Assembly (NCBI GenBank): GCA_964017145.1 | Contig: OZ024841.1 | Span: 434,001-498,000, forward strand | Reading direction: 5' to 3' | Source: Agrocybe praecox | Lineage: Eukaryota > Basidiomycota > Agaricomycetes > Agaricales > Agrocybaceae | Length of the DNA: 64,000 nt | Part shown: in pieces, positions 39,353 to 61,082 of the stretch | How positions within the stretch are numbered: the stretch's first letter is position 1 | How the letters are laid out: each line of letters starts with the position of its first letter | Made by a program: the position numbers and the translations under genes | The notes under the pieces: generated by a model | Database searches by the model: none | What the model saw: only the letters and a program-made list of their open reading frames with translations | Told to the model about the DNA's origin: nothing

Positions 39353-40719
39353 GTCTCTTTATTTCTGTCCTCCTTCTTGCTGGTAGCCCTTGGACATTTA
39401 TTTTTACTTTTCATATATGATATATCTGTGTCTCTGTCTTTCAAATACAAGTCCTCAATATATGCTGTTTCTCCCCCTTTGATGCTTTATAAAATGATTA
39501 GTTCTTGAAAATGATTTCTAAGTATTTCTACTTGTTTAAAATATTCTATATAAGGAAAATCTGAAATAATCCTTTCTTCAGAATTTTACAAAGTCAAATC
39601 TCTTGGTGAAAAATTATTCTAGATCTGTGTGTAAAATTTTGTCATTTTTGAATATCCATCAAAGTTAATTATGCCATATGGATTTACTCTAATAGATTCC
39701 ACAAGAGTGTGTTTAAATTCTAACTTATCTAATTGGAATATTCTTTGATTTATTGCTTAAATTTGGTGTAAAATTCACAAGTCCAACATGATGAAATATA
39801 TATTCTATTAAATTCTACAAATAAACTGCAAAATGATACAAGTTACTTCCATATACTTCTACAGCAAATTTCTACTAAGTTCTTTATCTATTTCAATAAT
39901 ACATCTCCATACAATTCTACAATCCTCTTCTAAATTACTCTACAAATAGTTGCTATATAGTTCTACAAATCATTTCTACATAGTTTCAAGACTGAGGCAT
40001 ACTTCATTGTCTTGACTTGTTTTTTCTATGTAGAATTTCTTTTCACTTGCTTATTGTATAAAATGTTCAAACCCAACTATATTTGCTTTATGTTCATTCA
40101 AAACCAAAGTCATACAAATAAATAAAATGTAATGGTGCAATCACTTGTTAACTTTCTTATATAAGCACCAAAGTACAAGTTTGAGTCTGTTATAAAATTT
40201 ATCTAGCCTATCAACACAAGTTAACCATTAATCAAAGGTGTCTTGAGATATATCAAATGTCAACTCTGGATATGCTGCAGTTGCTTGCTTCCATATTTCT
40301 GGTATGTGACGAATGAACCAGATGATGTGAATAACATAATCTTCAAAAAGAAAAAGGCTATTTCCTCTGTACCCAACGGTAAAATCTGGATGATGGGATA
40401 GTCAATGTTCATTGTACTTTAGAAATTGACATTTGTAGAAATATTGAAAGCATATGGGGAAAACAATTTTCTTCATCAAGTCTTGCCAGCCAAGCAGATA
40501 TAGAACCCAGCGGATTTTGGATTTATTTTAGCAATTCTTAAACACATTGCTATGCTTATTGAGAATGCCATTGCATTTTGCCCAGCAGATAACACACTTT
40601 TCTTGAAGCATGCTAGCGACACAGTTCAACAAGTTCAATTTTTGTGTCTTGGCATTGAGTTGTTGTTAATAATATGAGATACCCCTAAGTACACCAAATC
40701 CAGGTTTATTTCTTGGTGT
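39353..40719. other. AT-rich gene-free stretch
   Basis: Low-GC DNA with many short variants of TTCTACA and TATAGTTCTAC (39840-40000), as in decayed repeats. No coding frame supported. Confidence 0.45.
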
Positions 40720-41329
40720 GGTGTCATGCGTCATAATTGATTAAACATGAATGAACCTGAAATTGCATAAGAGATTAATTGTTTATTTTTAAATTTCAAT
40801 ATCTCCTTTTTTGTATTTATCTATTTTAATGTACCATCACAACTCTATCGCAACAAATAAGGCACCAATTCTTCCCAATTGTCCTCTTCTATTTTGCCAT
40901 TTACTCTGATTTAAAGTGGGATATGTTCACTTTGAATCCCTTTCTTTAACTCACTCTCAAATCTTGTCCAGGACAAAGGATCTGTCAAAGTACGAACCCA
41001 TATGTAGCACCCCCCTATTTTATATTTACATTTATTTACATTTTTTCTTTTTTCTTTCTCATTTGCATACTTGCACACCTCAGTCATTTACCACATATTG
41101 AACATACTGAGGTATGCAGCTTCATCATTATCTCATACCATAATTACCAAATAATTACTTATATATTTTATAGTCAGATTTTGACAGGTAATACATACAG
41201 TCGTTTACCACATATTAAACATGCTGAGTCAGATTTCAACACATTATGGGCTCTGTGTACTAACCCTGCACCGAACTGATTCAACACAAATTACCCAAGT
41301 ATTTGATTCACAATAAAACCCTACTAAAA

Positions 41330-42300
41330 GATGTCCACATCAGCGACTATCAGCCCTATCAATTTACTGGACAAGGATAAACTCTGTGGACACAAAAACT
41401 ATGGACATTGGCATATCCTCATAGAAGCACACAGAAAACTCAAGGCTTTGCATAAATACTAGAACCACAAAATCACTGTCCCTGATGACATTGAGGAGGA
41501 AGATGATGAAGTAGAAAATTACCTTGATGCAGAAGGGGGTGACAACAGCAAAATCATGCCAAATCCCAAGGGAAGCATCAGGAGAAATACTTTTTGCCCT
41601 GGACTGCCCTGACTGCCCTGGACTGCCCTGGGACACCCTGGGATGCCCTAGGGCAATCCAGGGCAGTCAGGGCAAAAAGTATTTTTCCTGATGCAAGGCC
41701 AATGCCAATCAAACCAAAGCCATCAACGGTTGTGGACAAACCCACCCCACTCCACTCAACCACACTGAATGCTCTTGAGTATGAACTACACAAGAGTGTG
41801 ACATTGTTATCCATATTGATCAATGTCATGGACATTTATGGATGTGGCATTGATCCCAACAAAAGGTCTCATTAGGCCTGGGCAAGCCTTGAGGCCCAAT
41901 ATGGAAGAACAAGTGACTGGGCAAGGAATATGTGAGAAGAAGCACTCGCAAATTGCAAATTGGCGGAAGGGGATAAGGTCACCGGCGAGGATGGGCACAT
42001 AGAGAGGATGTGGAAATTGTGTCAGTGGGTGAATGAAGCAGGAGCCAGGATTGGAGACTCATATTTCACCACCAAACTCTTTGACTCCTTTCCTGAATCA
42101 TGGGACCCAGTCATCACACTGATGTACAGTGAAACTGACCTCAGCAAGGTCATAATGAACCTCACCACACACGCTGAGCACTTCGCTATACGTGAAGGGA
42201 AAGTAAAGAAACACCCTTTGAAGGTACTATGATACATGAACCCTCAGAAACTACCCAACAAGAGTGATACATCCACACCAAAAGTTGGCCAGTTCCAGCA
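41330..42300 (+). pseudogene. Gag-like remnant (Copia/UBN2 type)
   Basis: Readable in broken frames: LLDKDKLCGHKNYGHWHILI, HSTTLNALEYELHKSVTLLS, WASLEAQYG, EGDKVTGEDGHIERMWKLCQ, TTKLFDSFPESWDPVITLMY and KVIMNLTTHAEHF. The spacing matches Copia gag proteins (W at the start, WxSLxxxYG, then a helix with SFPESW). Stops and a hairpin insertion (41578-41692) show it is dead. Confidence 0.6.
41578..41692. mobile_element. ~115-bp foldback (MITE-like) insertion
   Basis: Near-perfect inverted repeat: GCATCAGGAGAAATACTTTT (41576 onward) with TGCCCTG repeats, and the complement of GCATCAGGAAAAATACTTTT at the right end. The middle is CAGGGCAGTC/GACTGCCCTG repeats. It interrupts the gag remnant. No clear target duplication. 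Confidence 0.7.
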
Positions 42301-42671
42301 GTGATATATTACCATGCTGCAAGTGAAGAGCAGCTGCCTTTGGTAAACATTGCCGTATTTTAAGGTTTGGACAGTAATTAGGGACTGCAGGTGTAGTGGT
42401 TATGTTTTTCGTTATGATATGTCAGATATATGTTTTAAATATATTTTATGCTTTTTTGGTACCCTTTGCGCACCTAAAAAGGGACAGGATGGGATGGATT
42501 AAAAATATACAACCAGTGTCATGCTTCATAATTGATTGAACATGAACGAACCTGAAATTGCATAAGAGATCAATTGTTTATTTTTAAATTTCAATATTTT
42601 CATTTTTGTACTTCTTCATTTTAATTTACCATCAAAACTCTATCACAACAAATAAGGCACCAATTCTTCCA

Positions 42672-44301
42672 AAAATCTATTCATTCCAGGCCCAAGTCAT
42701 AAAACTGTCACCATGATCCACAGCAACTCATTCTTTCCTCTCAACGTTCATCATCTTATGCGTTCATCTTTGAAAATGTCTTCCCCTTCCATCCAATTAG
42801 GGACTAGCATGGTAAACTGTGGTAAAATCAATAAAATCAAAATTTCTCATTCGCATTTTGTTCTAATTTCATAAGATTTGAGAAATAGGTAGAACATCTG
42901 TATATCTATTACCACTGCGAGTTTCAAAAAATGAGATCAAGAAATGGTTGTGTAACCTCAAACAGTAAAATATGAACCGTGGTTTTTTACCATATGTTAT
43001 TAATTCAATATTGCCACATTCTCACTTCCAATTTCTAATTTACTTGCACAAAAAATGAATCCTCAAAAACCAGAACATCTTGTCTACAAGATACATCAGA
43101 AATTATAACAAAAAGTGCAAATTTGTGCTTGAAAGGAGGTTTCTGCTAGGCGGAGTCAAAAATTGGAGTTTTCCATGCTAGTCCCTATGTCCAATCCTTT
43201 GTTCAACAGTCCAAGGATGTCGCCAATTCTTCCGGACCTTGAAAATTCAATAAAGTGTCAATATATCCATTTATTCAAATTGCCGGAGTTTTTGATGCAA
43301 GTGAAAATTGCGAAAATTGGCTAGCAACACATTACACACAGGATCATATTTTTCAAGAAGGAGACACCGTCAGTTTCACATACAGAATTCATTCAGACAA
43401 CACATCAAAAATCATTCACCTTGAGGAAATTGTGCATTATGAAAAGGAATTATAGTTTTCGCAGTAATGACCACCAAGAAATTGGCACTGGCATTATTCA
43501 CAAGACCCCGTATTGCTATCCAATGATCACAAGTGTCCCTCAGCATCATGCAAAAGATAAGATATGCCTACGCTTACATCACATGATGGCACAGCATATT
43601 CACCACTTATTTAAATTCATCGCATCCCATCTACTCCATCAAAAGACTTTGATGACATTATGCAAAGTCTAGGCCATCAAGAGGCTGTGCAACCATCATT
43701 CCAAACACATGATTCGATGTCATATGCCTATCACAAGTCACCATGAGTCACAGGAACTGATGCATCAACAACGAGGCTATGCTAAGATTGCATCTGCCAA
43801 ATATAGCAATCTATCAGCTGGAAATAGCTCGATTCCTTCCATTCGTCGATTTCACTAATTGTCAAATCAACTATGATCGATTTATCATTCAAGAAGACGT
43901 GCTTGGTCATTCTTTGCTGCACATTAGTCAGCTTTTTTTATTTATTACTCATTCTTATTCATTTCTTACTCATTTCATTGATGGATGGATAGTTTTCTCC
44001 CTTTCCATTATTTCAACCCATTTCTTTGTCATTCCTGACTCACTCACTCAGTCAGCTTATTCATTCAACCCCTTATTCTTTGTAATTCATTTCAACCTTA
44101 CTTGTCATTGATTATTCATGCCTTGCAGGATTTGTAGTATAAAAGCTAGTTAGATCCTGTAAAGTAGAGACAAGAAGTACACCCCCCATCATAGGACAAT
44201 TGTACCGATTCAAGCAGCTATTTTTCAGTTCAGTATTTGTTCAGTCAATTCTCAGTCTCAGCAGTCAATTCTATAGCTCGGAAAATGTTCCAAGCTTCGA
44301 T
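42672..44301. other. Unassigned stretch, possible nested insertion
   Basis: Sits between two halves of what looks like one LTR. It contains a 66-aa frame of unknown meaning (43255-43455) and, near its end, a promoter-like GTATAAAAGC (44139). No transposase or polymerase recognised. Confidence 0.35.
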
Positions 44302-44405
44302 TATTCTCTTCTTTTTCGACGTTTACTCTGATTTCAAAGTGGAATACGTTCACTTTGAATTCTACTCCCTTATTCAATCTCAAACTTTTGTCTAGGACAA
44401 AAGCT
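44302..44405 (+). repeat. LTR-like fragment
   Basis: Matches 40889-40990: TTTACTCTGATTTCAAAGTGG-type block, GTTCACTTTGAATTC, and GTCTAGGACAAAAG. It is probably the remainder of the 3' LTR whose beginning is at 42513. Confidence 0.5.
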
Positions 44406-45828
44406 CATCACAAACCTTTAACCCTATTCGATCTTTACACCAACAAACCATTCCTAGGAACAAAGTAACTTTATTCCCACCCCTGAACTCACAGGGAGAG
44501 AGTCATCTTATCTAGGTCTAGCCCACTCTTTCTCTGGATTTTGTTGTTGGTTGTGTTTTGTGTGGTTGGCAAAGCATAAATCACCGACAGAAAAATAGTC
44601 TTTCAATGTGACAACGGCAACAACATGCCAACGACAACATGCCAACGACAATATGACACGATGATGACACGACAACGACACGCCAGGTGAACAAACCAAT
44701 GAACACGAGGGGACCGGGTTGGGGGCAAGGGCGTGACGTGGCATGATGGGGAGGGGTTATAGGACAATGAAGGGGGTACAATATGGGAATGGGTACTACA
44801 AGGTAAATACCCCATCGACACCGTCTCCTAGCTCACTGCTGCTGTCCACAGATTGCCCTCCTTTATCCCCCCTATCCTCCACCCTTCTCTCATCTCATCC
44901 CTTTCCCTCCAATTAAATAATTATATATGTATATAAAATTATGTATGTTATAAATCAAATTGACCTAAATTGAATTAAATTGCTTTTTCATTTTTTTTTT
45001 GTGTGAATCTCAGGTTTTTGGTGAATGTTATTTTTTTTAAACATAAGTGACCTTGTATAAAAAGTGCAAATAGCAAGTTTCCACTAAGTTTGACAGAATT
45101 CTGGATGGAGTCCAGTGGAGTCCAGCACAAAAAATATGCTAATCCACTGGACTCCACCAGGAATCAGTGTGGGAGTGTAAAGTATTGTAAAATATCTTCC
45201 AATTCTGGAGGAATACTCTCGAAAATGCATAAAAACACATTTATTCAAATCTAAAATAATACATGTATTTTATATACTACTTAAAGCTAAGGAAAAGCAT
45301 AGGAGGATGTAGAGGGAAAGGGTAAGAAAATAAGAGAAGAGATAGATGGAAGGGGCAGAGAAGACAGAAGGAACAGAGAGGGGAAAGGTGAAGCAAGAGC
45401 AAGAGCAAGAGTAAGAGCAAGAGCAAGAGGAGGGTGGCAGACAGGGTCACTTTTGCTCGCTCATCATTGTTGTTGTTGTTTGTGTGTGCTCACCCTCCCC
45501 CTTGGGCTTTCACGTGCTCACCTTCTCCCTTCGCATTTTTGCCATTCCCCTCCTCTTTGCTTACAAACCTCATCTTCGTCAGCCATAACATTGCAGGTGC
45601 ACTGCCCACATCCCTACAAAGCGGAAAGGAGAGGGGCATGAGGTGGGGTAGCTTGCTGCTGGTTGAGCTGATAAGAGGAGGTGATATGGATTGGGCGGCC
45701 GTTGTGGTGGTGGCTGGTCTCAGTCGCTGTCATCTGTTGTGCTTGGGCTATTGTCTGTCATCTGTCGTGCTGGCGTTAGCCGTTATCTTTGCACTAGCAG
45801 TTGCACTCACCGTGGTTGTTGTCTGTTG
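44406..45828. other. Low-complexity gene-free stretch
   Basis: Includes CAACGACA-rich DNA (44600-44690), a perfect-arm hairpin (45113-45154: TGGAGTCCAGTGGA and its complement) and AGCAAG hexamers (45391-45427). Frames here follow composition; no gene supported. Confidence 0.45.
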
Positions 45829-45967
45829 TCCTTGTCCTTGCCCTTGTCCTTGTCCTTGCCCTTGCCCTTGCCCTTGCCCTTGCCCTTGCCCTTGCCCTTG
45901 CCCTTGCCCTTGCCCTTGCCCTTGCCCTTGCCCTTGCCCTTGCCCTTGCCCTTGCCCTTGCCCTTGC
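45829..45967. repeat. CCCTTG hexamer minisatellite
   Basis: About 23 units, the first few with T for C (TCCTTG), ending 85 bp before the assembly gap. It differs from the telomeric CCCTAA unit at the last two bases. Frames through it (Cys-Pro, Leu-Ala, Lys-Gly runs) are artefacts of the repeat. Confidence 0.95.
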
Positions 45968-46052
45968 TGTCATTGTCACCATAGCTGTTGTCTAGCATGC
46001 TTTATGTTTGTGCGCTCATCGTTTGTGCTTGCATTTGTTTATCGTTAGGTGT

Positions 46053-46252
46053 NNNNNNNNNNNNNNNNNNNNNNNNNNNNNNNNNNNNNNNNNNNNNNNN
46101 NNNNNNNNNNNNNNNNNNNNNNNNNNNNNNNNNNNNNNNNNNNNNNNNNNNNNNNNNNNNNNNNNNNNNNNNNNNNNNNNNNNNNNNNNNNNNNNNNNNN
46201 NNNNNNNNNNNNNNNNNNNNNNNNNNNNNNNNNNNNNNNNNNNNNNNNNNNN
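46053..46252. other. Assembly gap, 200 N
   Basis: Exactly 200 unknown bases, a typical placeholder. Telomeric repeats begin on the very next base, so the join between the two contigs is doubtful. Confidence 0.98.
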
Positions 46253-46354
46253 AACCCTAACCCTAACCCTAACCCTAACCCTAACCCTAACCCTAACCCT
46301 AACCCTAACCCTAACCCTAACCCTAACCCTAACCCTAACCCCTAACCCTAACCC
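46253..46354 (+). repeat. Telomeric repeat array (CCCTAA)n
   Basis: About 17 units of the C-strand telomeric repeat with one extra C near 46341. In this orientation the chromosome end lies to the left and the chromosome body to the right. It abuts the truncated PLE with only AA of ambiguity. Confidence 0.97.
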
Positions 46355-46582
46355 AAGGCGGCCTACCTCGATTCGATCAAGAGGCTAACATCCTCTCCAC
46401 GCTATCAGAAGCAAGCACAACGTTCCATCAAGAAGGGACGTCAACACGCCGATCGCACCGAGGCCGCTCGGGAAGCTCAACGTGGCGCCAACATCAAGGC
46501 CACCAACGAGCGCTTCAAGGCCCCCAACAAGAAAGCTCGCAAGGGCAAGGGCAAAGGCAGAGGCAACCAAGGGAAGAAGTGA
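46355..46582 (+). pseudogene. PLE unit 1 ORF1, C-terminal fragment
   Basis: Open from AAYLDSIKRLTSSPRYQKQA through a very basic tail (NKKARKGKGKGRGNQGKK) to the stop at 46582. The N-terminal three quarters is missing because the unit is truncated. The last bases overlap the RT frame as in unit 2. Confidence 0.8.
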
Positions 46583-49056
46583 GTGCTCCGACATCGTATT
46601 CGTCGGCACTTCTTCCCTCGTCGGTCATTTCGGGGGGTACGTTAACGCGTACCCCCATTATATTCCGGTATGACCTCCCGTTCACTTATCCAGATTGGTT
46701 ACTGACTATACCATTCCCCCTCGCTGTCAATTATATACTTTTAAATACGCCTGTTAATGTACTACTCGCACTCCAATTTAAAAGCATTATTCATCTCAGT
46801 CCTGGTGTGAACATCCCGAAAAATATCGAATATCAGCTAAGTATGGGCATGAGGTTTATGTTTACCTCACGCCGCGACGAATCATTAATTCTGAAAGCCG
46901 CGAAAGACTTTGAACGACGTTTATCATGGCGTCTCCACTTTGCCTTCATTGGAGTGGAAAACAACACTGATTATGATCCAGATTTCGAACCGCTTAACGC
47001 GTTACCTAAAACAAGTAAGCCATCGAAGTTACCCAAATATATTGGTAACGGTTTCGCAAGAGGTCGAGCGTACGTTCAACGTACCTACATACCCAGCGAA
47101 TCAGAAGACAGGAGAGAATTTAAAGCGTTTACACCTGATCTTGCCGAAATCAAAGAGTTCCTGCTAAATAATAAATACGTAGTTACAGGAACCGACAAAA
47201 ATCTTGGAATTGCGGTCTCAGAACGCGAGTGGATCATAACCAAGTGCCAAGAATTATTAGACGATACAAGTAACTATACTGAATTATCATATGGTTTTCA
47301 ACCCACAAAGTATGGCCCACACCGTACCGTGTCTTTAATCCTTCGGTCCCAAAACGAACTAACTTTGCAGCTCGCTGATATGGCCGCTGCAGTACCTAAG
47401 TATGAAATGCAGGTGCCGGACTTCTTGCGGTCGTCAATGACGCCTCACGTCCAAAATGACGATGGTCTCCCTAAACGATTAGATGGTGAGATACAGTTCA
47501 CGGCACGACACAAATTGCCATTATTTTATGGTATACCTAAAATTCATAAGGTCCCTACCAAAATGCGTCCTATTATACCGTGTCATTCTGCTGTAATCAA
47601 CACTGCAGCTAAGTTAGTTTCAAAAATTCTTAAACCGTTAATTCAAACGGCGCCAACTATCATTCATGGTAGCAAGGACTTGGCGATAAAATTAAGTAAA
47701 CTACAATTAGATCCTAGTCGAAAGTACTTCATTGTTACTGGAGACGTCGTAGCCTTTTATCCTAATATAGAGATAGAGACTTGCCTCAAAAAGATAACAG
47801 AGTTATTTAATCTGTATTACTTTGGCGATAAAATTAACGCCGGCGAAGAGTTGTCAGACGAAGACGAGGCGTTTGCCACTTTGTTTGACGCCGCTTTACG
47901 ACTGGGAAACACTAATTTAATTACACAATTTCAAAAAAAGTATTACCTTCAGACGCGTGGACTAGCTATGGGTGTAGCATCGTCCCCGGACTTAGCCAAC
48001 CTTTTTGGCTATGCATATGAAGTAGAAAGTAAAATAATGAATAATAAAGACGTCCCGTTCTACGGGCGTTATATTGATGATTGTCTGGCAATAGTATACG
48101 CCGATACACTTGAACGCGCCGTTCAAATTGTCTCGTGCGTCCAGATACACACCTGTGTAATAGAATGGGATGCGTCGCCTACTCATGCTCCGTTTCTGGA
48201 CATGTTCCTTTATGTTGATGATAATAGAAAATTAGAACATAAACCATACCGCAAGCTTCGCAACCACCAAGAAAGAGTTCCTTTCGCTAGCCACCACCCT
48301 TACGACGTCAAACGTGGTACGTTCTGGGGTGAAATGGCTCGTTTAGCCGTGCTAAGTAGTAAATTTAGCGACTACCGAGATGCTTTACATTCCTTAGCAG
48401 GTCTGTACATCGCACGCGGCTATCCGCAGGATATGATATATGGCTGGCTTAAGTCTGACATTTCAAAACGATGGGATAATCGCTTAAGCGTTAACTCTCA
48501 ACATCGCGATAACGACGCGGGCGTTTTGGTACTTAAAGGCAGCTTTAATACAGCATGGAACTATTTCAACGCAAAAGGATATATCAATACTATCTTCGAT
48601 TATTGGCGCGAATACCTCAATAGAGGTCAGCGTGATGGCGCGTTAACCCTGGAAACAGGTCATTACCGCTACGAGAATCATATCGATCATTGGCCTAAAC
48701 AGTACACTGACATGTATTCGGAGGTTAACACTTCCTTATATGTGCGGCCAGGCTGGCAGACCCTTGTCCCGGATGTTACTAAAACCGATATATTGAATCG
48801 TCGACTGATCGTATCGCGAAAGCGTACACGAAACCTGTTCGACTTAACAAGCTCTTGGAAACAAGAAGTATTGAATGTTTACGAGAGAGAATTGGCGGAT
48901 CATCCACCAATTGCCGTCCTTCCGTTCGGCTTTGCAGAAGCTCCAAACGAACCCGGCCGGGTTCGCGATGAACCTGCTGAAGCCGGCGATCTGGAATGGC
49001 GCCCAAGACTGGAAGATACTCTCTTCGCCAACCTAGGTGGCGGATATGGCAGATAA
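46579..49056 (+). CDS. PLE reverse transcriptase, unit 1 (lacks its upstream ORF1)
   Basis: Open 825-codon frame almost identical to unit 2 (about a dozen amino-acid differences). All RT motifs are intact: DKNLGIAV, YGIPKIHK with RPIIPCHSA, GDVVAFYPNI (motif A), AMGVASSPDLANLFG (motif B), YIDD (motif C) and the thumb region. No GIY-YIG endonuclease follows. It has no proper start: the frame opens at the GTG overlapping the ORF1 stop, and the first Met lies well inside the conserved region. Without the upstream ORF1 and promoter this unit is probably not expressed alone. Confidence 0.9.
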   Translation: MSAPTSYSSALLPSSVISGGTLTRTPIIFRYDLPFTYPDWLLTIPFPLAVNYILLNTPVNVLLALQFKSIIHLSPGVNIPKNIEYQLSMGMRFMFTSRRDESLILKAAKDFERRLSWRLHFAFIGVENNTDYDPDFEPLNALPKTSKPSKLPKYIGNGFARGRAYVQRTYIPSESEDRREFKAFTPDLAEIKEFLLNNKYVVTGTDKNLGIAVSEREWIITKCQELLDDTSNYTELSYGFQPTKYGPHRTVSLILRSQNELTLQLADMAAAVPKYEMQVPDFLRSSMTPHVQNDDGLPKRLDGEIQFTARHKLPLFYGIPKIHKVPTKMRPIIPCHSAVINTAAKLVSKILKPLIQTAPTIIHGSKDLAIKLSKLQLDPSRKYFIVTGDVVAFYPNIEIETCLKKITELFNLYYFGDKINAGEELSDEDEAFATLFDAALRLGNTNLITQFQKKYYLQTRGLAMGVASSPDLANLFGYAYEVESKIMNNKDVPFYGRYIDDCLAIVYADTLERAVQIVSCVQIHTCVIEWDASPTHAPFLDMFLYVDDNRKLEHKPYRKLRNHQERVPFASHHPYDVKRGTFWGEMARLAVLSSKFSDYRDALHSLAGLYIARGYPQDMIYGWLKSDISKRWDNRLSVNSQHRDNDAGVLVLKGSFNTAWNYFNAKGYINTIFDYWREYLNRGQRDGALTLETGHYRYENHIDHWPKQYTDMYSEVNTSLYVRPGWQTLVPDVTKTDILNRRLIVSRKRTRNLFDLTSSWKQEVLNVYERELADHPPIAVLPFGFAEAPNEPGRVRDEPAEAGDLEWRPRLEDTLFANLGGGYGR

Positions 49057-50348
49057 TAAAAACTGTACTACTAGATACGACTGATTCCCCGATCCCGTAA
49101 GAACTCGGAAGGCGTCGGCGGTGGTCGAACGTGTGGTATAATAAAACTGTAGAACGACTTCAGATTGATTCGGATCGATCTCGAGTACGCGCGACGTGTC
49201 TAAATTGTTCGGTATTCATGCCTTTCGATATTCACCCATTGCATAGACTATGTAGCTGCTTGGTAGCCGATTTAATTGGCCAAAGACAACCAACGGCATA
49301 GACTAGTAACGCTTGTGCCCAAGCAAACCACTCAAAGGCCATGCCTTGTGTCGGGGAAGGATTGCAGTTAATCGCGAGATAATGCGAGATGCTACCTGAC
49401 CTTGTGCGGAACCTGCGACAGATAGTAGGTATAAGCTTGACTCGATACGTCGGGTCTCGGTGGTCCCTTTGCCCAAGCCTTGAACGAACGTTAGCCCTTA
49501 CTTCGGTTCGGGTAGTTAGTTGCTTTTAGCCGCAACAAACACTTGATTGATGCACGCATCTCGTCGTCGAGTCTAACATCATCCTAGTAACGCCCTTTGC
49601 GTTTAATAAATTAATAAAACCCTAAGTTATTTAATTATATAACAAAGGACTTGCGTAATTGACTGGTTATCTTTATTGATTATAGCCTTAGCAAATCCAG
49701 TCTGAACATAACAAGTTCGCTTTAGAGAATACTAATCTACCGGTAAAACGCTTACCTAACTCTAACTCTAACGTACGTCGATTCCTTAAAACGGAAATAC
49801 AGTAGCTAACTACTTAACGAACGGTTCGGTAGCCTAACCTCTAACCCGAACCTAACCTAAGCGTAGGTATAATAATAGCCCTGAGTTGGCGCTATATTGC
49901 AGATTACATAAGCGCGTAACAAGCGCCCATCATCACGTGATCTCTTACCTTCCGCATTTGGCCACTACGCTAAGTATTTATATCCATCGATCTACTTTGG
50001 TCGTTGTCGCTGGAACTGACAGCTTACTGATACTGCGGTGTTTCGCTGATTGATATCGTGCTTCTCGCCGATTATTGGTCAGCGATCCCGCGGGATGTAA
50101 GGCTTCACAGCTACTAATTGTTATAGAACATCGTAATCAGACTTACCAATGAGATCGGTAAGCGCGATGGTTAACAGATCTAACCGATCTAGCTATAGAG
50201 AAATATAGGACCTGAAGAGCTATAAAAGCGAAAAGGTCGTGCAGTAGAATTCCCTACTACACCTTTGTCCTTTCTCACTCAGCACCTTCGTTCGGCCTAC
50301 GGCCTCACTTCGGCGCTTCGTTCGAACAGCCCCATCCTATTCACCATT
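49057..50348 (+). other. PLE unit 1 3' region / unit 2 leader (pLTR-like)
   Basis: About 1.27 kb of non-coding DNA matching 54105-55371. Because the units are head-to-tail, it serves as the 3' region of unit 1 and the leader of unit 2, the arrangement called pseudo-LTR in PLEs. It holds a hammerhead-like motif (50207-50271) and ends with TTCGTTCGG-type repeats before the ORF1 start at 50349. Confidence 0.85.
50207..50271 (+). ncRNA. Hammerhead ribozyme, PLE unit 1
   Basis: All core elements can be read. Stem I: AGGAC (50207-50211) pairs with GUCCU (50267-50271). The core CUGAAGA (50212-50218) fits CUGANGA. Stem II: GCU-AUAAA-AGC (50219-50229). GAA (50230-50232). Stem III: AAGGU then GU and AGUAG pair with CUACU, AC, ACCUU across loop AAUUCC, with a 1-nt and a 2-nt bulge. 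Cleavage is predicted after U50266. Hammerheads are known in PLEs of many eukaryotes. The cleavage triplet UUU is weaker than the usual GUC, and stem II is only 3 bp. Confidence 0.82.
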
Positions 50349-51630
50349 ATGTCTTCAAACCCTCGTCGTAACATCACCCCGGCCCTTGGGCCTCTCCTCT
50401 CCGCTGTCACCACCGCTCCCAGCAAAGAGTCCAACATCGACCATCGTCATCTGACGATTGCCCAAGCAGGGACCTTTGACCAGGTCATGGCGCTGGTGCC
50501 CATCCAGTACCAACCTGCCCTCCGCCCTTGGTTGACTTCGGTCAATCATCGTGCGGAACAACGCTCGTCGTTGAGGGCCCTTCTGTCCAAGTGGCAGAAG
50601 ATGTATGACGCCACCCCGCGTCAATTCCCACCTAGCGTGGCCGTTAAGGTCTCGGAAGTACAGTTCTCTAAGGAGTTCTCGGAAACCGATGAAGCGTTCG
50701 CCATCCGCACCTCCCTTCAAAAGGGTGTGGACGACTTTCGCTCCGTTCGCTTCCTCGAAGCAAAGAATGCCAAGCAATTGGACTTCAAAAAGGTGGACGA
50801 TGAACTCAACCCCCTCACTCTCTTTAACGAAGGCTGGAATCTTGTTCGCCCTAAAGTGAACGAGATGATAGCCGGCGCTAAAACTCTCCTCTTCACCGGC
50901 GCTGCCGATGGAGACATTAGGGACGCGGCTGGCAAGCTGCTCCCAGGCGTCTCTCTGTTCGATGACAGGGACGAGGAGATGGAGGACGGGGAATCCCGAC
51001 CTATTGGTTATCGCACCTCGGGTGCAGTTCTTATGATCGCGGCGGATCTCCGCCAAGACCTCCTTCCTTACGCTCTGCGACTTATCCAGATCGTCGAATC
51101 CAGCGCCTATCAGGCTCAACTCAAGCTGGATGCCAAGAAGGAGATCAAGCGATCCGCCGACGTAGAAGCAGCTGACGCGGTTCCCAATACCGCATCGATC
51201 CAGTCAATGATCGACAAGGCAGTCGCTGCCAAACTCGGAAAGGCTAACTCGGTGAGTAACGCCTTTTATTTTCGCCTTCAAACCTCTCACCACCCTTTAA
51301 CAGTCCAACGCCAAGGCGGGCTCTTCCAAGGGTCCCAAACCGAAGGTGATTTCAAACTTCACGGAGGCCGCCGACCATCTCGCCATTTTGGACAAGATGC
51401 GCAAGGCGGCCTACCTCGATTCGATCAAGAGGCTAACATCCTCTCCACGCTTTCAGAAGCAGGCTCAACGTTCCATCAAGAAGGGACGCCAACACGCCGA
51501 TCGCACCGAGGCCGCTCGGGAAGCTCAACGTGGCGCCAACATCAAGGCCACCAACGAGCGCTTCAAAGCCCCCAACAAGAAAGCTCGCAAGGGCAAGGGC
51601 AAGGGCAGAGGCAACCAAGGGAAGAAGTGA
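50349..51630 (+). CDS. PLE ORF1 protein (spliced form)
   Basis: Start ATG at 50349 (MSSNPRRNITPALGPLLSAV), 83 nt after the predicted ribozyme cut. Exon 1 is 50349-51251; the 52-bp intron 51252-51303 begins GTGAGT and ends TTAACAG; exon 2 is 51304-51630. The 409-aa product ends with a Lys/Arg-rich tail (KKARKGKGKGRGNQGKK), likely to bind nucleic acid. Unit 1 keeps the same exon-2 frame open, which supports it as real. If the intron is not removed, the frame instead runs on into the RT. Role probably RNA packaging; inferred from position and charge. Confidence 0.75.
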
Positions 51631-54104
51631 GTGCTCCGACATCGTATTCGTCGGCACTTCTTCCCTCGTCGGTCATCTCGGGGGGTACGCTAACGCGTGC
51701 CCCCATTATATTCCGGTATGACCTCCCGTTCACTTATCCAGATTGGTTACTGACTATACCTTTCCCCCTCGCTGTTAATTATATACTTTTAAATACGCCT
51801 GTTAATGTACTACTTGCACTCCAATTTAAAAGCATTATTCATCTCAGCCCCGGTGTGAACATCCCGAAAAATATAGAATATCAGTTAAGTATGGGCATGA
51901 GGTTTATGTTTACCTCACGCCGCGACGAATCATTAATTTTGAAAGCCGCGAAAGACTTTGAACGACGCTTATCATGGCGTCTCCACTTTGCCTTTATTGG
52001 AGTGGATAATAACACTGACTATGATCCAGATTTCGAACCGCTTAACGCGTTACCCAAAACAAATAAGCCGTCGAAGTTACCCAAATATATTGGTAACGGT
52101 TTCGCAAGAGGTCGAGCGTACGTTCAACGTACCTACATACCCAGCGAATCAGAAGACAGGAGAGAATTTAAAGCGTTTACACCTGATCTTGCCGAAATCA
52201 AAGAGTTCCTGCTAAGTAATAAATACGTAGTTACAGGAACCGACAAAAATCTTGGAATTGCGGTCTCAGAACGCGAGTGGATCATAACCAAGTGCCAAGA
52301 ATTATTAGACGATACAAGTAACTATACTGAATTATCATATGGTTTTCAACCCACAAAGTACGGCCCACACCGTACTGTGTCTTTAATCCTTCGGTCCCAA
52401 AACGAACTAACTTTGCAGCTTGCTGATATGGCCGCTGCAGTACCTAAGTATGAAATGCAGGTGCCGGACTTCTTGCGGTCGTCAATGACGCCTCACGTCC
52501 AAAATGACGATGGTCTCCCCAAACGATTAGACGGTGAGATACAGTTCACGGCACGACACAAATTGCCATTATTTTATGGTATACCTAAAATTCACAAGGT
52601 CCCTACCAAAATGCGTCCTATTATACCGTGTCACTCTGCTGTAATCAACACTGCAGCTAAGTTAGTTTCCAAAATTCTTAAACCGCTCATTCAAACGGCG
52701 CCAACTATCATTCATGGTAGCAAGGACTTGGCGATAAAATTAAGTAAACTACAATTAGATCCTAGTCGAAAGTACTTCATTGTTACTGGAGACGTCGTAG
52801 CTTTTTATCCTAATATAGAGATAGAGACTTGCCTCAAAAAGATAACAGAGTTATTTAATCTGTATTACTTTGGCGATAAAATAAACGCCGGCGAAGAGTT
52901 ATCAGACGATGACGAGGCATTTGCCTCATTGTTTGATGCCGCTTTACGACTAGGAAATACTAATTTGATTACACAATTTCAAAAAAAGTATTACCTTCAG
53001 ACGCGTGGACTAGCTATGGGTGTAGCATCGTCCCCGGACTTAGCCAACCTTTTTGGCTATGCATATGAAGTAGAAAGTAAAATAATGAATAATAAAGACG
53101 TCCCGTTTTACGGGCGTTATATTGATGATTGTCTGGCAATTGTATATGCCGACACAATTGAACGCGCCGTTCAAATTGTCTCGTGCGTCCAGATACACAC
53201 CTGTGTAATAGAATGGGATGCGTCGCCCACACATGCTCCGTTTCTGGACATGTTTCTTTATGTTGATGATAATAAAAAATTAGAACATAAACCATACCGC
53301 AAGCTTCGCAACCATCAAGAAAGAGTTCCTTTCGCTAGCCACCACCCTTACGACGTCAAACGTGGTACGTTCTGGGGTGAGATGGCTCGTCTAGCCGTGC
53401 TAAGTAGTAAATTTAGCGACTACCGAGATGCTTTACACTCCTTAGCCGGATTGTACATCGCACGCGGCTATCCGCAGGATATGATATATGGCTGGCTTAA
53501 GTCTGACATTTCAAAACGATGGGATAATCGCTTAAGCGTTAACTCTCAACATCGCGATAACGACGCGGGCGTTTTGGTACTTAAAGGCAGCTTTAATACA
53601 GCTTGGAACTATTTCAACGCAAAAGGATATATCAACACTATCTTTGAATATTGGCGCGAATACCTCAATCGAGGTCAGCGTGATGGCGCATTGACCCTGG
53701 AAACAGGCCTCTTTCGCTACGAGAATCATATAGATCATTGGCCTAAACAGTACACTGACATGTATTCGGAGGTTAACACTTCCTTATATGTGCGGCCAGG
53801 CTGGCAGACCCTTGTCCCTGATGTTACTAAAACTGATATTCTTAACCGTCGACTAATCGTATCGCGAAAGCGTACACGAAACCTGTTCGACCTAACAAGT
53901 TCTTGGAAACAAGAAGTGTTGAATGTTTACGAGAGAGAATTGGCGGATCATCCACCGATTGCCGTCCTTCCGTTCGGCTTTGCAGAAGCTCCAAACGAAC
54001 CCGGCCGGGTTCGCGATGAACCTGCTGAAGCTGGCGATCTGGAATGGCGCCCAAGACTGGAAGATACTCTCTTCGCCAACCTAGGTGGCGGATATGGCAG
54101 ATAA
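51627..54104 (+). CDS. PLE reverse transcriptase, unit 2 (EN-less)
   Basis: RT region of a frame that is open without break from 50349 to 54104 (1,251 aa) when the ORF1 intron is kept. The conserved PLE N-terminal block includes SPGVNIPKNIEYQLSMGMRF. RT core: TGTDKNLGIAV, LPLFYGIPKIHK, VPTKMRPIIPCHSA, GDVVAFYPNIEIE (catalytic Asp), RGLAMGVASSPDLANLFGYA, YGRYIDDCLAIV (two catalytic Asp), EWDASPTHAPFLDMFLYV, then a thumb with HHPYDVKRGTFWGEMARLA. The C-terminus (FANLGGGYGR) has no GIY-YIG domain, as in telomere-associated PLEs. It has no ATG of its own before the conserved block, so expression needs intron retention or a -1 shift from ORF1. Confidence 0.93.
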   Translation: MSAPTSYSSALLPSSVISGGTLTRAPIIFRYDLPFTYPDWLLTIPFPLAVNYILLNTPVNVLLALQFKSIIHLSPGVNIPKNIEYQLSMGMRFMFTSRRDESLILKAAKDFERRLSWRLHFAFIGVDNNTDYDPDFEPLNALPKTNKPSKLPKYIGNGFARGRAYVQRTYIPSESEDRREFKAFTPDLAEIKEFLLSNKYVVTGTDKNLGIAVSEREWIITKCQELLDDTSNYTELSYGFQPTKYGPHRTVSLILRSQNELTLQLADMAAAVPKYEMQVPDFLRSSMTPHVQNDDGLPKRLDGEIQFTARHKLPLFYGIPKIHKVPTKMRPIIPCHSAVINTAAKLVSKILKPLIQTAPTIIHGSKDLAIKLSKLQLDPSRKYFIVTGDVVAFYPNIEIETCLKKITELFNLYYFGDKINAGEELSDDDEAFASLFDAALRLGNTNLITQFQKKYYLQTRGLAMGVASSPDLANLFGYAYEVESKIMNNKDVPFYGRYIDDCLAIVYADTIERAVQIVSCVQIHTCVIEWDASPTHAPFLDMFLYVDDNKKLEHKPYRKLRNHQERVPFASHHPYDVKRGTFWGEMARLAVLSSKFSDYRDALHSLAGLYIARGYPQDMIYGWLKSDISKRWDNRLSVNSQHRDNDAGVLVLKGSFNTAWNYFNAKGYINTIFEYWREYLNRGQRDGALTLETGLFRYENHIDHWPKQYTDMYSEVNTSLYVRPGWQTLVPDVTKTDILNRRLIVSRKRTRNLFDLTSSWKQEVLNVYERELADHPPIAVLPFGFAEAPNEPGRVRDEPAEAGDLEWRPRLEDTLFANLGGGYGR

Positions 54105-55371
54105 TAAAAACTGTGCTACTAGATACGACTGATTCCCCGATCCCGTAAGAACTCGGAAGGCGTCGGCGGTGGTCGAACGTGTGGTGTAATAAAACTGTAG
54201 AACGACTTCAGATTGATTCGGATCGATCTCGAGTACGCGCGACGTGTCTAAATTGTTCGGTATTCATGCCTTACGATATTCACCCATTGCATAGACTATG
54301 TAGCTGCTTGGTAGCCGACTTAATTGGCTAAAGACAACCAACGGCATAGACTAGTAGCGCCCGTGCCCAAGCAAACCACTCAAAGGCCATGCCCTGTCGG
54401 GGAAGGATTACGGTTAATCGCGAGATAATGCGAGACGTTACCTGACTTGTGCAGAACCCGCGGCAGATAGCAGGTATAAGCTTGGCTGGTTACAGACCGG
54501 CCTCGGTGGTCCCTTTGCCCAACGCCTCGTTCGAACGTTAGCCCTTACTTCGGTTCGGGTAGTTAGTTGCTTTTAGCCGCAACAAACACTTGATTGATGC
54601 ACGCATCTCGTCGTCGAGTCTAACATATCCCAGTAACGCCCTTTGCGTTTAACAAATAAACCCCTAAGTTATTTAATTATATAACAATAGGACTTTCGTA
54701 ATTGACTGGTTATCTTTATTGATTATAGCCTTAGCAAATCCAGTCTGAACATAACAAGTTCGCTTTAGAGAATACTAATCTATCGGAAAAACGCTTTCCT
54801 AACTCTAACTCTAACGTAAGTCGATTCCTTAATCGGAAATACAGTAGCTAACTACTTATCGAACGGTTCGGTAGCCTAACCTCTAACCCGAACCTAACCT
54901 AAGCATAGGTATAATAATAGCGTCGAGCTGGCGCTATAATGTGGATTACATAAGCGCGTAACAAGCGCCCATCATCACGTGATCCCTTACCTTCCGCATT
55001 AGGCCACTACGCTAAGTATTTATATCCATCGATCTACTTTGGTCGTTGTCGCTGGAACTGACAGCTTACTGATACTGCGGCGTTTCGCTGACTGATTGTT
55101 GTGCTTCTGGCCGCGATTCGTCAGCGATCCCGCGGGATGTAAGACTTCACAGCTACTAATTGTTATAGAACATCGTAATCAGACTTACCAATGAGATCGG
55201 TAAGCGCGATGGTTAACAGATCTAACCGATCTAGCTATCGAGAAAATATAGGACCTGAAGAGCTATAAAAGCGAAAAGGTCGTGCAGTAGAATTCCCTAC
55301 TACACCTTTGTCCTTTCTCACTCAGCACCTTCGTTCGGCCTACGGCCTCACTTCGGCGCTTCGTTCGAACA
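54105..55371 (+). other. PLE unit 2 3' region
   Basis: Non-coding, matching 49057-50328 with few substitutions and small indels. It contains the second hammerhead and ends in two CTTCGTTCG copies around GGCCTACGGCC, 62 nt past the predicted cleavage site, directly before the telomeric repeats. Confidence 0.85.
55250..55314 (+). ncRNA. Hammerhead ribozyme, PLE unit 2
   Basis: Same sequence and fold as at 50207-50271: AGGAC/GUCCU stem I, CUGAAGA (55255-55261), GCU-AUAAA-AGC stem II, GAA, bulged stem III, cleavage after U55309. It is exactly 5,043 nt after the first, one unit length, and none of its paired or core bases differs, although neighbouring non-coding positions do. Confidence 0.82.
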
Positions 55372-55387
55372 ACCCTAACCCTAACCC
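55371..55387 (+). repeat. Short telomeric tract at the PLE 3' junction
   Basis: AACCCTAACCCTAACCC joins the PLE 3' end to non-element DNA (AAAGCGGCTGC). It is the expected scar of an element primed from the 3' end of a G-rich telomere overhang, and marks an earlier chromosome end. Confidence 0.9.
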
Positions 55388-56585
55388 AAAGCGGCTGCTA
55401 GTCCTATGCATGGGCCTAGGCAACGACCCCATCAATCCGCTCGCGGTATTCGAGTTATAGCCAGATGAGGACGACGACGAAGGTCCAGCAGCACCAATAA
55501 CAACTGTATTATACGATCAGCAGAGGCCTGGTCTGCCTTGTGGTGGTGGTAATGTGGATTTCGGCGTCGTCGTTTTATCGTTATTATGTGTCCTTTTGAG
55601 CGAAATAGTCGTTGGAGTTCACATGTTGACGTGTATGTGTGTGTAGATGAGAAAGAAGAGAGAGCGAGGCGACGGGCTGACGTACGACATGTCTATGTCA
55701 TATATTTTTGGTTTGGTAGAAGTCGATAGACATTGATAGGTGGGCGTTTTTTCTTCTTCGTTAGTTTGTGCTTGGTTCGCGGTTGGTCTAGATACGAAAG
55801 AAATCATCAGTAAGATAAAAATAAAATGACGTCGAGGCCTGAAAAAATCAAAGAAAGGAAGAACGTATAGAACACGGTTTTGGTCAAGAAACGAAGGATA
55901 TCGACCATGCACATCAATGCCTATGACGACAGCGGACGTCGATCCATATGATATACATAGGCATGCATCGCTTCTCAGGGAAGCAAGGCATTATTGACAA
56001 CGAGGTAAGAGAGTTGTTTGTTGGATGATTGATGATAGGGATAGGGATAGGGATAAGAATGAATCAAAGGGCAACACAACAAGAAGTGAGATGCGACGAG
56101 CGAAGAGGTAACGAAAGAAGAGGGATAAGAAAAGGAAGGAGCGTTGAAATGGGTAGTGCAGGCGGTGTTCAGGATATGGCACGATATGATGCGAATTTGA
56201 AAAATGAATCTTGCAGCTACGTTCGTTCGACTCGGGAAAATTGGTATAAGGAGAGGACGAAACAAAACAAAACAAAACGAACAGAATAAGATAGAATAGA
56301 AATAAAAAGATAAGATAATCGGCGTGGAAGGAAGTAAAACGAACAGAATTAAAAGAGAAAGAGAAAGAAATCAGACCAACATACCCTGTAAACCTCTTTG
56401 TTCGTTTATTGACGATAAATAGATATCTATTCGTTCCTAGTCGTCCGTCACTGCAAAGAATTTTATGTGAGCTGAAGAAGTGTGAGTAGAATTAAGAGAA
56501 TAATGATTTGACCACAAAAACGTACCCAGATAATAACCCTCTACGTTTGTCCTTAACACAGTACGTCTGTGAAGCGCGTCAATGC
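55388..56585. other. Subtelomeric DNA, no gene recognised
   Basis: The start has a short protein-like stretch (LCMGLGNDPINPLAVFEL then a stop near 55459), perhaps the end of a gene broken by telomere loss. From about 55640 the sequence is purine-rich, with long minus-strand frames due to composition. Confidence 0.4.
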
Positions 56586-56593
56586 AACGCAAC

Positions 56594-56976
56594 TAGTGAT
56601 GGGCATGGGTGACCCATGGCCAAATTTTAGGTCACCCACACCCATACCCATAGAAACCCACACCCACACCTGTGGGTATGGGTATCCCACATGTACAGGG
56701 GTGGGTCTCTATGTGTCCCATGGGTCAAAAATCCTGTGTGGGTGTGTCTTATGGGTCAAGAATTATATTATCAAAAAACAAACATATGGATTGCATTAAC
56801 TGATATTTGAAAATGGAAATTCCCACACACTATCCATACTGTACTATGATACTGCCATCAAACCCACTCCCATGGGTGTGGGTATTTCATGGGTGAAAAT
56901 TTATTCACCCACACCCACACCCACCACACCCATACCCACACACCCATGTGGGTATTAAAACCCATGAACATCACTA
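56594..56976. mobile_element. hAT-type MITE, 383 bp, perfect 8-bp target duplication
   Basis: Flanked by AACGCAAC (56586-56593 and 56977-56984). Ends are TAGTGATGGGCATGGGT and the complement of TAGTGATGTTCATGGGT. The interior consists of CACCCA/TGGGTG motifs (ACCCACACCCA, TGGGTATGGG). The 8-bp duplication and TAGTGATG ends are typical of hAT elements. Confidence 0.92.
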
Positions 56977-56984
56977 AACGCAAC

Positions 56985-58645
56985 GCTATTTGAGTGCCGG
57001 CACTTACTTTGTCGGTGCGTATTGGACTCCATCCTCTGTGGAAGCATGCCTGACTCCGATAAAGAGTGTGTCTGGCAGAATTCTTGGGTTATGAACGAAA
57101 CGATAATGGACGGGCAACAAGAGGATGCGGAAAATTGAACGGATGTCATGTCCTTCCCGGATCCCGGTCCTCAGTTCGATAATGTGTTCTATAATGTGCA
57201 GTCCCTGTGGTAAATATAAAAGCCTGCGCGAGATAAGTTCGACCGCTCGAATCGTAAAGCACCACGTACAAGTAGTGAATTCAAAGGACGCTTGATGACT
57301 CCGAGCCCTGCCTGGTGGTACATCATCCGCTCGCTTCCATGTTTCTAAGGGAAGGTTGAGAAGTGCGGGGTGTTGGCTCTATTGAGCCAGGTCAGTACTG
57401 CCTGCCTTCTGCGAAACAAAAAGAGATTTACTTGGTAATTACTTGGAAAAAAATTTGAACAAGCCCTGCTCACTGTCGTGGACGACTTGCACACTGTGTA
57501 GTCGAGACTAGACACCGCATGCGGATGGAATCATGTGAGTAGTTTATCTTATCTTATCTCGCCGCTTCCTTCGAAATACCATTTATTGTTTAATAAATAA
57601 TGGACAATCAACAACAGGGCGCGGCGTTTCATCAAGGGATGAATCCCATTCTTTACTGCTCAACGAAGATTATCGCACTATGAACAAATATTAGCGGTTT
57701 ATTGATGCGGTATTGTATACCTAGACACTCGCTGATACACTAGCGTTGAAGCAGGTTGAAGCAAACTGGCTCGCGAAATTTTTGTGTAGTTCATCCGTTC
57801 TCAAATAAATAATTTGATGTGTTCCTAATCTGCGCATCTGAAATTTCGCTACGCCCCTATTTGGAGTCTCATCGATCTCATCGATCTCGCGTGGCCGAAT
57901 TGAGAATTTGCTTGATTTTTCCTGGCAGGTATATAATACATAGTGGACATTGCGGCGCCTGCAACTTGGTGAGGGTGGCCCAATTATATTCACTCGGTTC
58001 TCGGGTTGTTCTCGCGCTCAAATTTCAATAAAAAAACAAATTGCGTTCAACTGTTTCAAACCTTTTAATTGGCTCTCATACCGTATAACGTCAATAAACT
58101 CCTCTCACGCGTCCCAAGCATAAGCGTTTGACGTTCTATATTGTGTCACTTTTATGGTTTTTGTAAATTGGCCATTTTCAACGGCGGGCCGCATCGATGG
58201 ACTAAGTAGCGTTAAATTCTCTTGTAGGGTGCTTGTTTGAACTTTCTGTCGCTTGTTGAAGTCATTCAGAGACGAAATTCAAGCAGGAGATATGAGGGAA
58301 GAATCAGATAATTAAATGTCAGGATTTCACTTGGATTTCATTAAGAGTTCGGAATGTTTCACGTGAGTCCGTTAAATATGTTGGCTAAAGAAATGACGGT
58401 TACGCTAAATACGTTCGCTAAAGCTGACTAAAGACAGTGGTGATCTCAAAAGATCTTAAAGTGAAATCCAAGCCAAATATCGGAGGCAATATCACGTGGA
58501 GTATGTAGGCTAAAGCCGGGTTTACGCTGAAACTGTTCGCTAAAGGCGTATGCTAAATGCGTTAAGTATATATCTTGGCTAAATAGTCACAGAACAGCAA
58601 ACCGTCTGGAACGTGACCAGAAACGTCGCAAGTGAACAAGAAGAT
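56985..58645. other. Intergenic, no gene seen
   Basis: Moderately AT-rich. Near 58380-58590 the words CGCTAAA/GGCTAAA recur about eight times just before the hAT gene. No other structure recognised. Confidence 0.4.
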
Positions 58646-60267: not shown

Positions 60268-61082
60268 CCAGCTGTGGATAACATAGACTGGTGAAATTTC
60301 TATGAATTGGTCATTTCAATATACAGAACTCCGTCAGGACTTGATCACAGTTACATTGCTGTGTAGGTGTTGCAATGTTTTAGGTATGAGGCGCCCGAAT
60401 GCATAGAAATTGAAATATGTTTTACTGTTCGCATCATTCGGTATACACTCGTTGAAGAAAGTTCAAGCTGAGGACTGGCTCACTGTACCAGAATTTGGTC
60501 CCACGTCGACCGTATACCGGTCGGGCAACGCAAAGTTGGTGCAACTCATCTTTGACAAAAGAGAAGAATTTCGAACATATCCTCCGTTCTCGTCTGGCAC
60601 TGGTAATGTGGGACGAATGGACAGCACTGCCATTGGTTTCCGAATTTATCCCATAAGAAACGCTAGAATTTAGGAAGCCGCAAGCCAGTCTCAAACGTGT
60701 TTTGAGAAACCATACTGATACACACACATACGATATTCGGGCCTGGAACATCGCAAATCTTGTATCATGAAGCAGTTTTGAATCCCAAGTTCTAACTTTT
60801 TACGGTCCATGTGTAAGGCGCCGGCATACAGAAAACTCGTGATACTTACATGGATTAGTACACCTGGATGGATGGATGCAGATATGCTACATTATCCACG
60901 CGTAACCCGAACCTGTCGATTTGGAGGTTTGGACTGACCAACAGACAGCTCAAACGGAGCAGTTGGATGATTGATCCAACATGGGCCCGGTCTCCACCAG
61001 CGGCGCAGATACTTACTCGGCGTGCAAGGTGATAAGGAACTCGGTCATGACTCATGACGGACGGACGGGCATGCAAATTTTC

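What the first reader, a model, noticed from the sequence alone, without database searches (positions are those of the whole stretch)
46253..55387. Head-to-tail Coprina-type PLEs capped by telomeric repeats on the left and scarred by telomeric repeats on the right
Seen: CCCTAA array (46253-46354), 5'-truncated PLE, complete PLE, then AACCCTAACCCTAACCC at the exact 3' end. Known: EN-lacking PLEs (Athena, Coprina) attach to G-rich telomere overhangs with the 3' end toward the chromosome body and 5' ends capped by new telomere repeats. The window shows both junctions of such an event. The two units meet without telomeric repeats between them, so they probably arrived as one multimer or by template jumping rather than as two separate end additions.
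Basis: partly seen in the sequence, partly recalled or inferred. Interest (0 to 1): 0.9.

Follow-up and report, generated by a model that had tools for sequence, protein, structure and literature searches.

The report
Telomerase-like retroelements capping chromosome ends
This stretch is most likely a natural chromosome end, scaffolded by mistake into the middle of a longer sequence, where two copies of a telomerase-like retroelement were added one after the other onto a broken, telomere-healed chromosome: a known kind of element with an unusually full record of how it grows.

Summary
In detail: (AACCCT)n array 46253-46354, 5'-truncated PLE 46355-50327, second PLE 50328-55370, AACCCTAACCCTAACCC 55371-55387. 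RT places of this family point 5'-outward in 38 of 38 cases on 18 arms; 17 of 19 telomere arrays examined sit on it. With 11 copies of one fixed internal seam set aside, 40 of 48 3' ends carry at least 5 nt of telomere repeat in one register. The RT model's best structural matches are telomerases; no GIY-YIG nuclease was found; the genome keeps a TERT gene. Homology to an uninterrupted paralogue stops exactly at the right seam: a chromosome broke, was healed with telomere repeat, and then received PLEs. Not supported: arrival as one multimer. Unit 1 differs from its neighbour at 144 of 3965 sites, but from copies on two other chromosomes at 2 of 3965 and 1 of 2560. Unit 2 lacks its own ~0.5 kb 5' repeat. 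The kind is known (Athena/Coprina PLEs); what this genome adds is the seam record, homogeneous arrays at two ends, and a telomere-like tract where 5' ends cluster.

The parts
46053..46252 (.). 200-N scaffold gap directly outside the telomere array (contig end)
   Evidence: same 200 N then telomere then PLE at C3 (gap 208280-208479) and C12 (gap 60399-60598)
46253..46354 (+). (AACCCT)n telomere array capping the 5' end of unit 1
46355..50327 (+). PLE unit 1, 5'-truncated (begins at about position 1075 of unit 2); RT region 46801-49053
   Evidence: twin copies on C1 and C7; RVT_1 3.5e-5, under Pfam's cut-off
50324..50333 (+). seam of unit 1 on unit 2: GAAC-A-GCCCC, no hexamer repeat
50328..55370 (+). 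PLE unit 2, full ORF, without its own 5' copy of the terminal repeat
50349..54104 (+). single open frame (ATG to stop, 1251 aa) through ORF1, intron and RT when unspliced
   Evidence: open in 11 of 11 copies that hold the start; eight relatives aligned
51252..51303 (+). retained 52-nt intron-like stretch, GTGAGT...CAG
   Evidence: present in 17 of 17 copies that hold this place
51304..51630 (+). ORF1 second exon in frame +1 with basic C-terminus, TGA 51628-51630
   Evidence: 14 of 20 variable columns at the third position of this frame
51849..54101 (+). telomerase-like RT region (751 aa); no GIY-YIG nuclease found
54875..55370 (+). terminal repeat R (pLTR); in canonical copies all or part of it also stands upstream of the ORF
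   Evidence: 0.091 variable columns per base against 0.239 in the rest of the 3' UTR
54875..54905 (+). telomere-like tract at the start of R, where 5' ends of other copies cluster
55255..55281 (+). hammerhead-like core CTGAAGA-stem-GAAA followed by GGTC (also 50212-50238 in unit 1); not matched by Rfam
55371..55387 (+). telomeric seam AACCCTAACCCTAACCC at the 3' end of unit 2
55384..57204 (.). flank homologous in three pieces (about 95-97%) to C2:4653721-4655078; homology stops exactly at the seam (broken duplicate)

Best explanation
Window 46253 onward is a natural left chromosome end; the sequence left of the N gap was scaffolded onto it in error. A chromosome broke inside a duplicated gene-like sequence and telomere repeat was added at the break, using the ACCC already there. 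A PLE RNA whose 3' tail pairs with the G-rich overhang (GAAC-AACCC register) was then copied by its own telomerase-like RT, with the overhang as primer, giving unit 2. Later a second RNA, from another sublineage, was copied in the same way onto the outer edge of unit 2, giving unit 1, and telomerase capped it. Shown by sequence: order, polarity, seams, broken flank, separate ancestry of the two units, presence of a TERT gene. Inferred: erroneous scaffolding, priming on the overhang, tail pairing, order of events.
For: 200-N gap then telomere in three scaffolds, one of which (C12) carries three telomere arrays. Polarity 38 of 38 on 18 arms, 28 of 38 within 25 kb of the end (places; for C2, C3 and C12 the distance was taken from the internal array). 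17 of 19 telomere arrays examined sit on this PLE. Telomeric 3' seams in one register: 40 of 48 with at least 5 nt, 34 of 48 with at least 8 nt, 11 fixed internal seams set aside. 5' edges share bases with the adjoining telomere repeat: 18 of 36 junctions at least 3 nt, against 5.9% expected (rough control). Paralogue without the seam. Separate ancestry. Telomerase-like fold. TERT gene.
Against: No reads, no related strain and no RNA were at hand. The left boundary is an assembly edge. 2 of 19 telomere arrays (C10 left, C2 right) show no PLE in the adjoining roughly 400 bp. 8 of 48 seams carry fewer than 5 nt of exact repeat. 10 of 38 RT places lie 30-222 kb from the end. The 48 seams and 36 junctions include copies repeated inside the C1 and C5 arrays, so they are not all independent. 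The paralogue's upstream part is absent from the window, but the rest of the genome left of the gap was not searched with it.
Confidence: 0.85

Rival explanations
1. The two units arrived together as one multimeric RNA or by template jumping.
For: No hexamer repeat between the units; PLE partial tandems are in print (PMC3846280 passages).
Against: 144 of 3965 differences between the units, against 2 of 3965 and 1 of 2560 to copies on C1 and C7, which stand on other DNA. No second locus with this unlike pair was seen in the 23 stretches.
Confidence: 0.08
2. The scaffold is right and the PLE pair with its telomere tracts lies inside a chromosome, in or beside an interstitial telomere tract.
For: The assembly places 480 kb to the left.
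Against: The array begins exactly at a 200-N gap, as in two other scaffolds; C12 then has three arrays; the DNA that lies beyond the seam in the paralogue is absent from the window.
Confidence: 0.07
3. Copies spread between ends by recombination or break-induced replication rather than by reverse transcription.
For: C1 left holds three units with period 5545 and C5 right an A-B-A-B order with period 11130, about 100% identical between periods; these arrays may well have grown at the DNA level.
Against: Near-identical copies on different arms have different 3' flanks and different 5' truncation points, with telomeric seams, which exchange alone does not give.
Confidence: 0.12

Closest known systems
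Endonuclease-deficient telomere-associated PLEs (Athena, Coprina; Gladyshev and Arkhipova 2007, not held, recalled and seen only as cited in PMC12477314)
   Same: Telomerase-like RT, no GIY-YIG, 5' end outward and capped by telomere repeat, telomeric stretches at the 3' end (recalled); reported in bdelloids, basidiomycetes and others.
   Different: Here full units stand in tandem at two ends, a fixed internal seam recurs, and 59 3' ends were read in one genome; whether this is new for Coprina could not be checked in the original paper.
Terminons of bdelloid rotifers (Arkhipova 2017, not held; passage in PMC12477314)
   Same: Attachment to G-rich overhangs through C-rich repeats at the RNA 3' end next to a hammerhead motif; chains of units.
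   Different: Terminon units can exceed 40 kb and capture host genes between units; this unit is about 5 to 5.5 kb.
Penelope-like elements at Agaricus bisporus telomeres (PMC7473861 passages)
   Same: PLEs linked to telomeres in a mushroom.
   Different: No seam analysis in the passages seen.
MoTeR (Pyricularia) and FoTeR (Fusarium) telomeric retrotransposons (PMC8381367 passages; PMC12857005 passages and section 19)
   Same: FoTeR 3' ends are followed by several TAACCC repeats with a short telomeric motif at the 5' end; MoTeRs insert in telomere repeats, with truncated copies and arrays.
   Different: FoTeRs are called non-LTR retrotransposons (abstract in the listing); MoTeRs likewise by recall; neither is a PLE.

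Membership tests
Endonuclease-lacking telomere-associated PLE (Athena/Coprina type; features recalled) | RT related to telomerase | tested here: met
Endonuclease-lacking telomere-associated PLE (Athena/Coprina type; features recalled) | No GIY-YIG endonuclease domain | tested here: met
   No such Pfam match up to E 0.5 in 4 window translations nor up to 0.1 in 4 relatives. Pfam is weak here: it sees the RT in only 2 of 4 and 1 of 4 of these; model residues 673-751 are low-confidence
Endonuclease-lacking telomere-associated PLE (Athena/Coprina type; features recalled) | Located at chromosome ends with the 5' end outward | tested here: met
   38 of 38 placed RT loci; the 39th is on the small contig C27
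Endonuclease-lacking telomere-associated PLE (Athena/Coprina type; features recalled) | 5' ends capped by host telomere repeats | tested here: met
   17 of 19 arrays examined
Endonuclease-lacking telomere-associated PLE (Athena/Coprina type; features recalled) | Telomeric stretches at or near the 3' end | tested here: met
   40 of 48 ends with at least 5 nt
Endonuclease-lacking telomere-associated PLE (Athena/Coprina type; features recalled) | Falls in the named Coprina clade of a PLE tree | not testable with these tools
   No named Coprina or Athena sequence was at hand; the 120 listed of 548 homologues carry no element name
PLE in general | Pseudo-LTRs and partial tandems | tested here: met
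   R repeat before and after the ORF in canonical copies; tandems
PLE in general | Retained introns | tested here: met
   17 of 17 copies that hold the place; splicing itself not shown
PLE in general | Hammerhead ribozyme | tested here: inconclusive
   Core-like motif by pattern and eye; no Rfam hammerhead match up to E 5

The most novel reading that the evidence does not exclude
The element renews its own landing site: its repeat begins with a telomere-like tract, so a fully copied cDNA ends in GGTTAGG-like DNA with which the 3' tail of the next RNA can pair. Chains could then grow at chromosome ends without telomerase, a reserve telomere system made of telomerase's retroelement relative, in a genome that still has TERT.
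Probability: 0.3. Interest if true: 0.8.

Novelty: new member of a known kind. Interest (0 to 1): 0.55.

Why it matters
One genome holds dozens of readable seams of a telomerase relative at work on chromosome ends beside telomerase itself. That makes it possible to test how end-primed reverse transcription chooses its primer, whether PLE stacks can stand in for telomerase, and how broken ends are healed. It also shows that telomere arrays beside 200-N gaps probably mark real ends and expose scaffolding errors.

Tried and rejected
Rfam: none of 7 weak matches up to E 5 was a hammerhead, so the motif stays a by-eye lead. PDB by sequence: 0 matches up to E 0.1, so a structure was predicted instead. 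Searching the left flank (40000-46050) for another copy gave mainly a 1.4-kb repeat found at many places. Host: no call named the species; 'fungus' is a guess from genome size, TTAGGG repeats, a NACHT-WD40 gene and similar literature. A transcription start near 54875 was considered as the cause of the clustered 5' ends (11 of 54 junction rows lie at unit positions 4548-4566; 9 if repeats inside the C1 and C5 arrays are counted once); pairing of telomere repeat with the tract explains it as well and the two are not separated. The tract is not beyond chance as a sequence: best 24-mer score 17 (also reached at position 4472), against a mean maximum of 15.2 and a highest of 18 in 50 mononucleotide shuffles. 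The overlap control is rough: body compared with unit 2 only, longest repeat run chosen, array duplicates kept, and the 54 rows include a few partial or other-family matches that were not among the 36 with a telomeric run.
Full report
What is there. The array, the two head-to-tail units and the 17-nt telomeric seam are in the sequence as described. The window is G000:C2:434001-498000 of a 59.17 Mb genome in 347 contigs. The same order, 200 N, telomere array, PLE with its 5' end toward the array, occurs on C3 (gap 208280-208479) and C12 (gap 60399-60598); C12 also has arrays at its own start and end. I read all three as chromosome ends onto which other contigs were scaffolded; reads are needed to prove it.

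Genome-wide. A relative's protein (P0002) finds 39 RT places, 39 of 48 first-look candidates being scored. On chromosomes 38 of 38 point 5' outward, judged by scaffold half, over 18 arms; 28 of 38 lie within 25 kb of the end and the farthest 222 kb (distances on C2 left, C3 and one C12 copy were taken from the internal array). Of 19 telomere arrays that I looked at, 17 rest on this PLE; C10 left and C2 right do not within about 400 bp. Two further contig ends (C5 left, C3 right) stop inside PLE sequence, by eye. The nucleotide search with unit 2 gave 28 pieces with 14 of 39 candidates scored, so copy numbers are lower bounds.

Seams. 59 3' ends were read in the 23 stretches assembled. Eleven are one fixed internal seam, GAAC-AACCCTAATCAACGC-GCCCC, linking a terminal repeat of at most about 500 nt to the body; it recurs on C1, C5, C6, C8, C11 and C13, so I take it as part of the element. 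Of the other 48, 40 continue with at least 5 nt and 34 with at least 8 nt of AACCCTAACCC in one register; the window's inner 3' end has 17. Some of the 48 are repeats inside the C1 and C5 arrays. Several of the 8 short ones resemble AACCCTAA with a mismatch (AAACCTAAG, AATCCTAAT, AACTCTAAC, AACCTTAAG), as if the RNA tail paired with near-telomeric ends; the window's own (A-GCCCC) and one on C12 (A-GCCCT) are further off. On the 5' side, 36 of 54 junction rows touch a telomeric run; 18 of these 36 share at least 3 nt with it against 5.9% expected, and 12 of 36 at least 5 nt against 0.6% (rough control). Fixed register at 3' ends and shared bases at 5' ends both fit template pairing as in telomerase; that is inference.

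The right flank. Window 55384 onward is about 95-97% identical in three pieces to C2:4653721-4655078. There the sequence runs on upstream without any repeat (..GATGCAGACCCAAAGCAGC..), while the window has ..CTAACCCTAACCCAAAGCGGC. The upstream part of that paralogue is also homologous to C1 around 4448514 and has no match in the window. So the window's chromosome was cut exactly there and capped with telomere repeat sharing ACCC; the PLE pair stands on that healed end. I did not search the rest of the genome with the upstream part.

One event or two. Among 32 units of at least 1.9 kb, unit 1 is nearest to C7L (1 of 2560) and C1L (2 of 3965) and 3.6% from unit 2 (144 of 3965); unit 2 has no relative nearer than 3.6%. 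The twins of unit 1 begin at other truncation points (positions 561 and 2480) and end on telomeric seams with other DNA. Unit 1 therefore most likely arrived on its own, and the single-multimer reading is not supported.

Arrays. C1 left carries three units with period 5545: 0 of 5040 bases differ between two of them and 2 to the third. C5 right shows two alternating unit types with period 11130, at least 99.6% identical in every block compared. Such homogeneity suggests growth at the DNA level or a very recent burst; assembly error cannot be excluded. Copies of one sublineage on different arms differ by 0-6 of 5040 bases in the nearest pairs listed; most of them have frames without stops.

Two products. 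A 52-nt GTGAGT..CAG stretch at 51252-51303 is present in 17 of 17 copies that hold the place. Spliced, the frame leads to a basic ORF1 end (TGA 51628-51630); unspliced, it leads into the RT. Variable columns fall at third codon positions in exon 1 (80 of 108), in exon 2 in the spliced frame (14 of 20), in the RT (204 of 287), and in the intron in the unspliced frame (6 of 6). The eight relatives aligned also keep one long frame. This suggests that splicing chooses between ORF1 alone and an ORF1-RT fusion; untested.

What is known. I could not read Gladyshev and Arkhipova 2007, Arkhipova 2017 or Cervera 2014; their content is recalled or seen through passages of PMC12477314. The kind, endonuclease-lacking PLEs on telomeres of basidiomycetes and others, is known, and PLEs at Agaricus telomeres are mentioned in PMC7473861 (passages). 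PMC11167929 (section 3 part 1 and passages) reports reverse transcription starting inside the RNA for an endonuclease-bearing PLE; the constant GAAC end here suggests a fixed start too. PMC3846280 (passages), PMC10817607 (passages) and PMC4700185 (one passage) gave background only. A whole-word search for Coprina lists three papers, one of them on mobile elements. No paper on this element was seen in the listings (12 of 50 listed in the last). I file it as a new member of a known kind.

Most novel reading kept open. The repeat starts with CCTAACCTCTAACCCGAACCTAACC, and 11 of 54 junction rows begin at unit positions 4548-4566, 9 if array repeats are counted once. If the RNA starts there, each full copy ends in telomere-like DNA and prepares the end for the next. 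The tract's likeness to telomere repeat is not beyond shuffled maxima, so this rests on the clustering and on the seams.

Noticed in passing
window 50349-54104: Retained 52-nt intron whose splicing would switch between a short basic ORF1 and an ORF1-RT fusion of 1251 aa; codon-position patterns support both frames.
   Followed up: partly
window 4290-8091 (-): Adjoining frames with NPHP3_N/NACHT and a long run of near-identical WD40 repeats (126-bp units, 14.4 copies), like a fungal NLR gene.
   Followed up: no
L028 (C9, inner side of the piece at 3556953): A different element with a clearer hammerhead-like core (CTGATGAG-CC-GG-CGAAA) and a similar 3' end stands next to this PLE.
   Followed up: no
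L068 (C4 right end) and L071 (C254 end): Solo terminal repeats starting at unit position 4548 sit directly under the telomere, like short non-autonomous copies.
   Followed up: partly
C12 scaffold (L019, L047, L069, L070): Three telomere arrays on one scaffold, one beside a 200-N gap: probably a scaffolding error.
   Followed up: partly
window 45826-45967: (TTGCCC)n array of 23.7 copies just left of the N gap; relation to telomere repeat unclear.
   Followed up: no
L022, L023, L024 (C9, C4, C27): Three copies share the same 5' boundary (position 2725) and the same upstream poly-A flank, so this buried end seems duplicated with its flank.
   Followed up: no
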